This document shows, one piece after another, positions 33,525 through 45,609 of a stretch of DNA of 64,000 nucleotides. The first letter of the stretch is position 1. Each line of letters opens with the position of its first letter. Location: the IMG/VR virus record IMGVR_UViG_3300023179_000042, positions 1-64,000 of that record; one strand, written 5' to 3'. The DNA comes from a virus. The notes under the pieces were generated by a model. That model was not told the DNA's origin. It did not search any database and saw only the letters and a list, made by a program, of their open reading frames with translations. The position numbers were made by a program, and so were the translations under genes.

Positions 33525-34214
33525 TTAAGTATTAGCCAAGGTAACAACAGTACCGGTAGCCGATGCTAAAGTCCAGCCTGTTTGTACGCCATCGCTAACT
33601 AAGTAAGCAGTAGACATTGAACGTCGTTTAACTCTTACTTTATGAGCTGTTAGTTTAGTCACCCAGTATGTGCTTCCGTTATAATCCGTAGCAATGATAT
33701 TCATTGTTCCAGGAATCAATGTATTGGTAGCAGTTAATTTACACTGGCCAGTTCCGTCGGCATTCTGAACTAGGTATCGACGACTTGATTCTTGTTTAAT
33801 AATATCGCCACCAGTGCGACTTTGAGAAGCACTTGGTAGATATGAACTCAACGACAATGCATTTTGTCTATTAGACGTTAAAGTGATTGTAAATGTAGCA
33901 GTTGTACCTGTTGTGCCACCTGTAACTGTTGCGGTAGGTGCTGATGTGTAACCAGATCCAGCTGTTAACAAAGTAACAGTTGCTACCTGACCAAATGCGT
34001 TGGTTGTTACTCGACCAGTAGGGGCAGCTCCACCAGTAATATTAGGTGCTGTAAAAGTTAGACCAATAGTTGTAGAAGTAGTATATAAAGTACCGGTGTT
34101 ATTTTTAGCAATTGTGGCTACACCTTCGCCGCCAACACCGCTACCTTGACTTACACTACCGTAGTCAGGTAAATTTAAGTTACCAAAAAATTTCTTTTTA
34201 ATCGGACGTCCCAT
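33525..34214 (-). CDS. Capsid-neighbourhood protein of unknown function, 229 aa
   Basis: The N-terminus MGRPIKKKFFGNLN is basic. It is followed by Gly/Ser-rich sequence, then a repeat-like region (GRVTTNAFGQVATVTLLTAG; GSGYTSAPTATVTGG) of the kind seen in several phage and giant-virus surface proteins. The C-terminal half reads RRYLVQNADGTGQCKLTATN and STYWVTKLTAHKVRVKRRSM. Proteins with this opening recur beside the capsid gene in marine T4-like phages, from memory, so capsid decoration or head completion is a reasonable guess but not established. A strong AAAGGAG ribosome-binding site precedes the ATG. It sits between two terminators, so it is probably transcribed partly on its own, from a structured leader at 34215-34300. 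Confidence 0.72.
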   Translation of the reverse strand: MGRPIKKKFFGNLNLPDYGSVSQGSGVGGEGVATIAKNNTGTLYTTSTTIGLTFTAPNITGGAAPTGRVTTNAFGQVATVTLLTAGSGYTSAPTATVTGGTTGTTATFTITLTSNRQNALSLSSYLPSASQSRTGGDIIKQESSRRYLVQNADGTGQCKLTATNTLIPGTMNIIATDYNGSTYWVTKLTAHKVRVKRRSMSTAYLVSDGVQTGWTLASATGTVVTLANT

Positions 34215-34300
34215 TTTGTTTCTCCTTTAAAATAAACTAGCAGATTCTATCTGCTACGCGGCGGGGACCGCATAATATAAACATAGATACTTTATTTAAC
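34215..34300 (-). promoter_or_regulatory. Structured 5' leader of the 229-aa gene
   Basis: Between the gp23 terminator and the ATG at 34214 there are two compact hairpins: 34238-34256 (8-bp stem TAGCAGAT/ATCTGCTA, 3-nt loop) and 34261-34271 (GCGG/CCGC, loop GGA). A TTAAATAA string near 34291-34298 on the minus strand resembles the late promoter but is not an exact match. The hairpins could stabilise the message or act as a processing site. Confidence 0.4.
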
Positions 34301-43972: not shown

Positions 43973-44713
43973 TTATCTAGAAATTAATTTGCTCAAATAG
44001 ACTACACGATCGTATTCTTCGTTGTAGCCTCGAACAAGGTTAGGATTATCATCTTCTGGCGGAGTCACTGCTGGAGCAGCAGGTTTAGCACTTGGTTTTT
44101 TGCTCTTTGTTGGCTTGACCGCACTTGCTGCATCTGCTGGAGGCACAGCCGGAGTTGTAGCTGTACTTGCGGCTGGAGCAGCGGTAGTTGCCGCCGGCTG
44201 TGCTGAAATAGCATCTAATTTATCTTTGGCATAGGCTACTACATTTTGTCGATCTCTACTTCTAACTTTTTGTACACTTGCCACAGCTTGATCAACTTCT
44301 TGTTTGGCCTGACCGGCAGCAACACGATTGCTAGCTGCTGTTACTCCGGTAGCAGCTGGCGCCGAAACTCCACTAGCGGAACCAGTTGGTGCTCCAGTAC
44401 CACTCAATGAACTTGCTGGCGCAGTACCACCAGCTGTAGCACCTGAAGCGGAACCAGTTGGTGCTCCAGTACCACTCAATGAACTTGCTGGCGCAGTACC
44501 ACCAGCTGTAGCACCTGAAGCGGAACCAGTTGACGCGGCAGGAGCTGTTTGGGCACTATCATCCCAACTACCCTTGGCATCTTGGTAACCTTTTTTAACA
44601 TCTCTTCCAAATGCTTTTAGGCCACCAACTACGTGTCCAGCTGTTTTGCCAATAACTGAACCTAGACCTTCGTCTATAGTTTCTTCAAGTACAATAATTT
44701 CATTGATTTTCAT
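43973..44713 (-). CDS. Ala/Pro/Ser-rich protein with conserved ends, 246 aa
   Basis: The start is taken as the ATG at 44713 (MKINEIIVLEETIDEGLGSV), 27 nt after an exact TATAAATA promoter; a TTG five codons upstream is unlikely. The N-terminal 45 residues (a short helix, then GKTAGHVVGGLKAFGRDVKK) and the C-terminal end (VRGYNEEYDRVVYLSKLISR) look conserved. The centre is low-complexity Ala/Thr/Ser/Pro sequence with an exact 24-residue tandem repeat. Small proteins with a MKINEII start are common in marine T4-like phages, but I know of no function. It converges with the gp26 extension gene with only 1 nt between stop codons and no terminator. Confidence 0.7.
   Translation of the reverse strand: MKINEIIVLEETIDEGLGSVIGKTAGHVVGGLKAFGRDVKKGYQDAKGSWDDSAQTAPAASTGSASGATAGGTAPASSLSGTGAPTGSASGATAGGTAPASSLSGTGAPTGSASGVSAPAATGVTAASNRVAAGQAKQEVDQAVASVQKVRSRDRQNVVAYAKDKLDAISAQPAATTAAPAASTATTPAVPPADAASAVKPTKSKKPSAKPAAPAVTPPEDDNPNLVRGYNEEYDRVVYLSKLISR
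44376..44519 (-). repeat. Exact 72-nt tandem duplication in the 246-aa gene
   Basis: Two full copies of a 72-nt unit (44376-44447 and 44448-44519) plus the start of a third encode a 24-residue Gly/Ala/Ser/Thr/Pro unit beginning GSASGATAGG. The copies look identical at the nucleotide level, pointing to a recent duplication or ongoing slippage. Confidence 0.85.
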
Positions 44714-44740
44714 AGTCTTATCCAAAAAAATGATTAAAGT

Positions 44741-44748
44741 TATTTATA
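44741..44748 (-). promoter_or_regulatory. Exact T4 late promoter octamer TATAAATA before the 246-aa gene
   Basis: The minus strand reads CTTATAAATAACTTT, 27 nt before the ATG at 44713. It lies immediately downstream of the 44756-44774 hairpin, so the structured region upstream is separate from this transcript. Confidence 0.7.
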
Positions 44749-44749
44749 A

Positions 44750-45174
44750 GGATTAAGGTGAACTTTGTTCACCTGCCCTTTCGCTTGTCGCTCATGGCAA
44801 ATTTACATCGAAGATGTTTAAGTATCATCTAGATTAAGTGGTCACACTTTGCCCGCACAGGGCAAAGATTTCTGGGCATCATCTGAGTTGCACAGTCACA
44901 TAGCGTTAGAGCATTACAGTGGCGGTTGACCGGTACCACGAGCTCAGTCTTTATTCAACGGCAGGAGCATACAAATACGCTATCATTCATATGTCCGTTA
45001 GGGAATTACCCTTCTTTTTGCCTATTCATTCCTCTTCAAACAACCAAATCGCAGGTCTTAGTTAGCGATCCTCATCCTTTCGGGTAGTGGTTGAGTACTC
45101 TTAGCGGCGAGAGATTTCCGTCCCTGCGACCCGAGGTCCAGGTTTAGAGCACACGAACTTGGCCTGTGCGAGCC
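44750..45174 (-). ncRNA. Unassigned GC-rich structured region, candidate non-coding RNA (~420 nt)
   Basis: No reading frame explains this stretch, and it is much richer in G and C than its surroundings (36 of 60 bases at 45121-45180). It contains many helices: AGGTGAAC/GTTCACCT (44756-44774); CTTTGCCC/GGGCAAAG, loop GCACA (44847-44867); ACATC/GATGT (44805-44817); AGGG/CCCT (45000-45012); GCACA/TGTGC (45169-45165 with 45153-45149); GACC/GGTC (45138-45128); and AACGG/CCGTT around a GCGTA/TATGC hairpin (44967-44999). A long-range 7-bp helix, TCGCAGG (45129-45123) with CCTGCGA (45055-45049), encloses a branched domain. Flanking genes are on the minus strand, so I assume that strand. It begins right at the stop of the GIY-YIG gene. 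It matches no RNA class I can recognise. Confidence 0.5.
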
Positions 45175-45609
45175 TTAACCGTTTAATTTGCCTTTGATGT
45201 GTGAGCCATGGACACGGCACTGGATATGGCCGTTGTAATATTCATCTGATTCTAAGACTTGGTGTCTAAATTGCTCTCTTGCCTCAATATAACTACATTC
45301 TGCTTTAGATTTACAGTAGTAGAGTATTTCTCGTTTAAAATTATCTTTGCCTAATTTATTAATATCTTCTGTTAGATTAGGACTGGACCCATAATATTCC
45401 TGCCAGTCACTGTCTATTTTGCTACGAATTTTTTTCTTTTTCTTGTTGCCGTTTTTTAACTTTACTGTTTTGTAGGTTGTTTTACTAAATTTTGCTAATT
45501 TTTTGCCTATGTATTTTTTATTATTTGAAATATTTGTTATGATGTAGACAAACCCTACACAATCTTCGGGTAGTGCCTCAACTAAAGAATTTTGATAAAA
45601 CCAAGACAT
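45175..45609 (-). CDS. GIY-YIG nuclease-like protein, 144 aa
   Basis: Shows the GIY-YIG signature in variant form: VYI at residues 21-23 (in GFVYIITNISNN) and YIG at 33-35 (KKYIGKK), followed by a Lys-rich insert (50-62), DWQEYYGSSPNLTEDI (68-83) and a conserved-looking helix SYIEAREQ with Glu109 as candidate metal ligand. Family members include the Seg and intron-encoded homing endonucleases of T4; many phage homologues are uncharacterised. It overlaps the upstream gene by a TAATG stop-start junction, which suggests a settled operon member rather than a recent insertion. Its stop codon abuts the structured region. Homing, repair or RNA-related roles are possible; I see no second DNA-binding domain. 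Confidence 0.75.
   Translation of the reverse strand: MSWFYQNSLVEALPEDCVGFVYIITNISNNKKYIGKKLAKFSKTTYKTVKLKNGNKKKKKIRSKIDSDWQEYYGSSPNLTEDINKLGKDNFKREILYYCKSKAECSYIEAREQFRHQVLESDEYYNGHIQCRVHGSHIKGKLNG

What the first reader, a model, noticed from the sequence alone, without database searches (positions are those of the whole stretch)
44750..45174. Unrecognised structured RNA candidate (~420 nt) next to a GIY-YIG gene
Seen: a 420-nt stretch without a gene, distinctly more GC-rich than its flanks, packed with perfect helices, including a 7-bp long-range helix (45129-45123 with 45055-45049) around a branched domain and an 8-bp hairpin at its end (44756-44774). Known: phages carry several large ornate RNAs, and GIY-YIG enzymes often travel with self-splicing introns. 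I compared it by eye with tmRNA, RNase P RNA, SRP RNA, T-box and group I/II intron cores and found no convincing match. Inference: a novel non-coding RNA or ribozyme, possibly functionally paired with the GIY-YIG protein.
Basis: partly seen in the sequence, partly recalled or inferred. Interest (0 to 1): 0.8.

Follow-up and report, generated by a model that had tools for sequence, protein, structure and literature searches.

The report
Large phage RNA with twin words
The stretch encodes a real ~425-nt knotted RNA of large T4-like freshwater phages; only its first third was in the RNA databases, and its unlisted last part carries two short words about 55 nt apart that stay letter-for-letter identical while they change between phages.

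Summary
In detail: the region encodes a structured RNA on the minus strand, about 45182-44756. It is not unrecognised. Its 5' third (45174-45038) is a full-length Rfam hit, RF01718 Polynucleobacter-1 (120.8 bits, E 1e-25), described in 2010, function unknown. Rfam holds only the beginning. 72 of 74 phage contigs fetched by the 5' motif alone carry the next ~300 nt; the other two end too early. A tree-based covariation test on 117 sequences supports helices over the full length and three pseudoknots outside the Rfam model; one uses the end of the GIY-YIG (SegE) gene. The RNA occurs once per phage in a fixed order (gp46, SegE, RNA, baseplate) and persists in two loci without SegE. Some relatives carry a different large RNA there, absent from Rfam. 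Mobile elements in bacterial MAGs carry a third version. All three share an odd feature: two 7-12-nt words about 55 nt apart that drift between phages but stay identical within each RNA (170 of 172 loci). No third copy or complement was found. Best explanation: a trans-acting phage RNA presenting the same word twice to one partner (inferred).

The parts
44756..45182 (-). full-length structured RNA (5' end ~45182, 3' end at terminal hairpin)
   Evidence: conserved length and covariation across 117 non-redundant loci
45038..45174 (-). 5' domain = Rfam RF01718 Polynucleobacter-1 RNA
   Evidence: cmscan 120.8 bits, E 1.1e-25, model 1-141/141
45104..45182 (-). pseudoknot PKa: 45182-45178 (end of segE) with 45108-45104 (loop of hairpin P3)
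   Evidence: column pairs 23/102 and 25/100 significant; 90% canonical; not in the Rfam model
45149..45169 (-). helix P1
   Evidence: two significant covarying pairs, 98% canonical
45123..45142 (-). hairpin P2 (CCUGGACC..GGUC-CAGG)
   Evidence: in RF01718; pair 70/76 significant
45041..45093 (-). helices P4 (45093-45088/45046-45041) and P5 (45070-45065/45052-45047)
   Evidence: 96% canonical, covarying
44964..44996 (-). long hairpin P6
   Evidence: 12 of 13 pairs show double changes, 92.5% canonical
44900..44983 (-). pseudoknot PKb: AUAGCGU of the P6 loop region (44983-44977) with ACGCUAU (44906-44900)
   Evidence: 97% canonical; GCGU/ACGC to GUGU/ACAC compensations
44909..44959 (-). pseudoknotted domain: PKc 44959-44955/44929-44925, P9 44945-44942/44912-44909, P10 44939-44935/44923-44919
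   Evidence: helices 97.2, 99.3 and 100% paired; 0 of 500 shuffles reach the covariation score; slides drop to 37-53%
44877..44888 (-). twin word copy 1: ACUC-AGAUGAU-G (word 44884-44878)
   Evidence: letter-identical parallel coevolution with copy 2
44823..44834 (-). twin word copy 2: AUCU-AGAUGAU-A (word 44830-44824)
   Evidence: as copy 1; the only two places in the window with this motif
44846..44868 (-). hairpin P11 between the twin words (CUUUGCCC..GGGCAAAG)
   Evidence: conserved in type 1; other strong hairpins hold the same place in the sister RNAs
44756..44774 (-). terminal hairpin AGGUGAAC..GUUCACCU
   Evidence: pair 450/457 significant; no U-tract after it
44741..44748 (-). TATAAATA, T4-type late-promoter motif for the next gene
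   Evidence: only minus-strand TATAAATA near the RNA; the motif class lies just 3' of the RNA in most of 117 loci, hardly ever upstream
45175..45609 (-). SegE-family GIY-YIG endonuclease directly upstream
   Evidence: PF19835 E 3.5e-33

Best explanation
A large structured non-coding RNA of T4-like phages. Shown: an RNA-level structure on the minus strand with three pseudoknots, a fixed single-copy locus, a shared 3' module (word, strong hairpin, same word) that also occurs in two other large RNAs, and strict identity of the two words. Inferred: it is read together with the gp46-SegE operon, released with its 5' end at the SegE stop codon and its 3' end at the terminal hairpin just before the late promoter of the next gene, and works in trans. 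The 5' and central domains form a pseudoknotted body; the 3' module holds out the same short word twice, so that two identical sites of one partner (a dimeric protein, or two copies of an RNA outside the phage) bind side by side. Because the partner's specificity shifts between lineages, both words must change together.
For: RF01718 hit. 72 of 74 contigs found by the 5' motif carry the 3' domain. Covariation over the full length with tree-based nulls, confirmed for the 3' domain by the count of structure pairs. RNA rather than DNA: 87.6% of cells pair on the minus strand against 80.7% on the complement, with 908 G-U cells. No long ORF; the same place in 99 of 106 testable loci with both SegE and gp46; one copy in each of 20 large records. 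Twin words: 170 of 172 loci identical; changes at the word positions fall on the same branch in 24/24, 7/7, 9/9 and 8/8 cases (one further change in copy 2 only) although the flanking CUC/UCU never changes; the feature recurs in two other RNA types. Late-promoter motif just 3' of the RNA, and upstream of it in all 9 mobile elements scored.
Against: No transcript was seen. No U-tract follows the terminal hairpin and no clear promoter precedes the RNA, so the ends are guesses. Energy alone is not unusual. No partner was identified: no third copy or complement of the words within the RNA, in flanks, or at conserved sites of ten phage records. R-scape itself was not available; the test was a re-implementation. 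The homology of type 2 outside the 5' domain and twin module rests on inspection: the type-1 3' model does not hit it.
Confidence: 0.5

Rival explanations
1. Cis-acting element: a 3' untranslated structure that protects or regulates the SegE message, or a leader of the downstream virion gene.
For: Lies directly after the SegE stop and before a gene; PKa uses the last SegE codons.
Against: The downstream gene has its own late-promoter motif after the RNA and varies widely; the RNA survives without SegE in L035 and L087 and with extra ORFs in between; type 2 stands beside quite different genes. About 425 nt with three pseudoknots is more than stability needs.
Confidence: 0.18
2. Guide RNA for the neighbouring GIY-YIG nuclease: SegE binds the RNA and the twin words pair with DNA targets, for example the empty locus of rival phages.
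For: Both RNA types of the phages lie next to SegE; the words are short, variable and duplicated.
Against: Type 2 elements and two phage loci have no SegE next to the RNA; the named phages with SegE that were inspected have no such RNA-sized gap behind it; part of each word is constant in type 1 (AU-R-A); no matching target found in the phages. Types 1 and 3 share one locus, so the association is not independent.
Confidence: 0.08
3. Ribozyme: a self-processing or recombining RNA whose twin words mark two reaction sites (CUC|word, UCU|word).
For: Complex pseudoknotted fold; CUC/UCU before the words resemble 5' exon ends of group I introns (recalled resemblance, not a test).
Against: No group I/II or other ribozyme match up to E 5; several type 3 variants lack CUC/UCU (L304, L307, L379).
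Confidence: 0.08
4. The twin words are kept equal by a copying mechanism (short-tract conversion or template switching at the hairpin), not by function.
For: Direct repeats flank a strong hairpin, a known trigger of template switching (general knowledge).
Against: Fixed differences on both sides of the word (CUC vs UCU in all 131 distinct pairs; mostly G vs A after it) are not homogenised, and the word keeps a consensus within each type.
Confidence: 0.1

Closest known systems
Polynucleobacter-1 RNA (Rfam RF01718; Weinberg et al. 2010, PMC2864571)
   Same: 45174-45038 matches the whole 141-position model at 120.8 bits; 20 of 20 large phage records and 6 of 6 MAG genomes tested carry it.
   Different: The family stops at the first third; it lacks PKa, the central and 3' domains, the twin words and the phage locus.
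GOLLD and ROOL (large ornate phage/prophage RNAs; PMC12286853)
   Same: Large, pseudoknotted, carried by phages or mobile elements, function unknown.
   Different: No sequence or structure match in Rfam; not beside tRNA genes (none found in the window); twin-word module.
ICP1 ~800-nt abundant non-coding transcript and PLE IIR transcript (PMC7567579)
   Same: Precedent for long non-coding RNAs in a large lytic phage and in its satellite.
   Different: Sequence not compared here; different phages and hosts.
TIGR-Tas tigRNA and IS110 bridge RNA (from memory)
   Same: Two short recognition segments held by one structured RNA.
   Different: Theirs read different sequences; here the two words are identical. 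No Tas or IS110 gene was seen next to it.

Membership tests
RF01718 Polynucleobacter-1 | covariance model above gathering score (37 bits), full length | tested here: met
   120.8 bits, 1-141/141
RF01718 Polynucleobacter-1 | RNA limited to the ~141-nt motif | tested here: not met
   3' domain follows in 72 of 74 contigs; the other two end too early
GOLLD / ROOL | Rfam model match | tested here: not met
   no hit at gathering or E<=5
GOLLD / ROOL | homo-oligomeric RNA-only complex | not testable with these tools
   needs native gel or cryo-EM
group I / group II intron | Rfam core match | tested here: not met
   none up to E 5
group I / group II intron | interrupts a gene or exon | tested here: not met
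   lies between two intact ORFs
tmRNA / tRNA | ARAGORN detection | tested here: not met
   0 genes
RNA-guided nuclease system with GIY-YIG protein | nuclease always adjacent to the RNA | tested here: not met
   L035, L087 and type 2 elements lack SegE
RNA-guided nuclease system with GIY-YIG protein | guide matches a target sequence | tested here: inconclusive
   no match at conserved sites of ten phage records; host DNA not tested

The most novel reading that the evidence does not exclude
A class of phage and mobile-element RNAs defined by a twin-word module: two identical but freely changing 7-12-nt words flanking a hairpin, attached to at least three different large RNA bodies and read by one common partner, in effect a dual recognition RNA with interchangeable specificity used by T4-like phages and perhaps by their satellites.
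Probability: 0.25. Interest if true: 0.85.

Novelty: new variant of a known kind. Interest (0 to 1): 0.62.

Why it matters
A 2010 orphan RNA motif turns out to be the front end of a much larger phage RNA at a fixed place in large T4-like phages, with an unlisted sister RNA at the same site. That gives the motif a context and a testable length. Two segments that coevolve in parallel, not as complements, are unusual and point to a concrete experiment: change one word, the other, or both.

Tried and rejected
Group I/II intron, RNase P, tmRNA, riboswitch: no Rfam match up to E 5. Named phages: no blastn match to the RNA, and SegE relatives in Melnitz, S-SRM01 and ACP17 show no such gap behind the gene (the Variovorax record has no annotation). 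A third strand or guide target for the twin words: none in the RNA or within 1.5 kb, none in the window, only the two copies in contigs up to 64 kb for an 11-nt word, and only the twins themselves covary among homologous sites of ten phage records. Ribosomal hopping, considered because the word is followed by UAA/UGA in type 1: rejected, since spacing shifts frame and type 2 has no stop there. Codon reading of the words: rejected (parallel silent changes). Wrong turns: one search searched plasmids with wrong L192 coordinates and hit a transporter gene; redone without a match. L190, L191 and L193 are chance hits of the pattern. A type 2 pattern found nothing in IMG/VR.

Full report
What is there. 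The stretch 44750-45174 lies between a SegE-family GIY-YIG gene (45609-45175, PF19835) and a minus-strand gene starting at 44725. It holds no ORF above 53 aa. Rfam gives one strong answer: RF01718 Polynucleobacter-1 at 45174-45038 on the minus strand, full length, 120.8 bits, E 1.1e-25. That family was listed in 2010 from Burkholderiales and fresh-water samples without a function (PMC2864571); I found no other paper naming it.

The known motif is only the beginning. A DNA pattern for the most conserved part of RF01718 returned 74 IMG/VR contigs, all genuine by inspection. The alignment stays conserved for about 300 nt beyond the Rfam model. I built a covariance model of the 3' part: 72 of the 74 contigs, chosen without knowledge of the 3' part, carry it, and the two misses (L025, L033) end 140-181 nt after the motif. 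RF01718 is present once in each of 20 large phage records tested.

Structure. On 117 non-redundant full-length sequences I re-implemented an R-scape-like test (APC-corrected G statistic; null alignments made by redistributing parsimony changes over a FastTree tree). 25 column pairs were significant, 17 of them complementary and spread over the whole length. They define P1-P11 and three pseudoknots absent from the Rfam model: PKa joins 45182-45178, which is the end of the segE reading frame, to the P3 loop; PKb joins the P6 loop to 44906-44900; PKc crosses P9 and P10. For the 3' domain, the count of structure pairs gave 91.1% pairing, 99 cells with double changes against 31 in shuffles, and 37-53% pairing when slid. 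The minus strand pairs better than its complement (87.6 vs 80.7%) because of 908 G-U cells, so this is RNA, not a DNA structure.

Place. In 99 of 106 type 1 loci with enough sequence, gp46 (SbcC-like) and SegE lie upstream; a T4 baseplate gene lies downstream in 81 of 85. Two loci keep the RNA without SegE, which a PDDEXK/RusA-like gene replaces (L035, L087); in others an SGNH-like ORF (named by eye) or a second GIY-YIG gene lies between. A late-promoter-like (n)TAAATA(A/T) lies just 3' of the RNA in most loci and hardly ever in the 1.5 kb before it.

Two sister RNAs. From the SegE side, 60 of 70 testable relatives carry this RNA; at least eight of the rest carry a different large RNA in the same place. 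A pattern for it returned 90 IMG/VR loci. Rfam has nothing for it up to E 1 in four loci; a weaker covariation test supports helices (5 complementary significant pairs), and its gene order is the same. In MAGs assigned to Burkholderiales, Nitrospira and Syntrophobacter, RF01718 hits of 67-104 bits lie beside a DUF6641 gene and, in most, tyrosine recombinases, in longer RNAs. They are sporadic (5 of 399 and 2 of 401 genomes). In nine of nine scored, a TAAATA box lies 106-119 nt before the core motif; these are homologues, so the nine are not independent. My inference, not shown, is an integrative element or satellite that uses a T4-like phage's late transcription.

The odd feature. In the 3' module of all three RNAs the same word occurs twice, about 50-60 nt apart, on either side of a strong hairpin: ACUC-word and AUCU-word. 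In type 1 the words agree in 170 of 172 loci, although the word takes six or more forms. On the tree, changes at the word positions occur in both copies on the same branch in 24 of 24 (one more in copy 2 alone), 7 of 7, 9 of 9 and 8 of 8 cases. The columns are significant but not complementary. The flanking CUC/UCU keeps a fixed difference and the base after the word mostly does, which speaks against gene conversion. In type 3 the word runs from ACAUGAA to GGUUAAUGUAA and AUCAUCAAGU, again identical within each RNA (51 of 58 found automatically, the rest by inspection). In type 2, five of seven pairs agree in the first seven positions and two differ at the first base. I looked for a third copy or complement in the RNA, its flanks, the window, contigs up to 64 kb, and homologous sites of ten phage records, and found none. 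So the constraint is between the two words or comes from a partner outside the sampled phage DNA. A limit of this negative: a 7-nt complement occurs often by chance and non-coding regions align poorly, so a short, weakly conserved partner site in the phage could have been missed.

Judgement. The RNA is real (about 0.97). That it is a discrete trans-acting RNA is likely but inferred. That the words face one common partner is the simplest reading of the coupling, at roughly even odds against all rivals together. I file the 5' part as RF01718 and the whole as a longer, previously unlisted form of it.

Noticed in passing
34212-34295, minus strand: Full-length Rfam hit RF02980 freshwater-2 RNA (61.8 bits) in the leader of a gene starting MGRPIKKKFFGNLNLP; a second known orphan RNA in the same phage.
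   Followed up: no
43973-44725: Ala/Pro/Ser-rich protein with long near-identical tandem repeats and N-terminus MKINEII; downstream genes at this site vary from about 190 to 720 aa between phages.
   Followed up: no
L220, L226, L258, L285, L292 and L299-L388: Sister large RNA (type 3) at the same locus, without Rfam match, seen in at least 90 viral contigs.
   Followed up: partly
L213-L216, L204-L208, L189, L192, L194-L197: Element in bacterial MAGs with DUF6641, tyrosine recombinases, an AAA ATPase in some, and the RNA behind a TAAATA box; possibly a satellite of T4-like phages.
   Followed up: partly
L035, L087, L033, L066, L106, L137, L151: Gene swaps or insertions between SegE and the RNA (PDDEXK/RusA-like, SGNH-like by eye, second GIY-YIG), suggesting a hot spot for gene gain.
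   Followed up: partly
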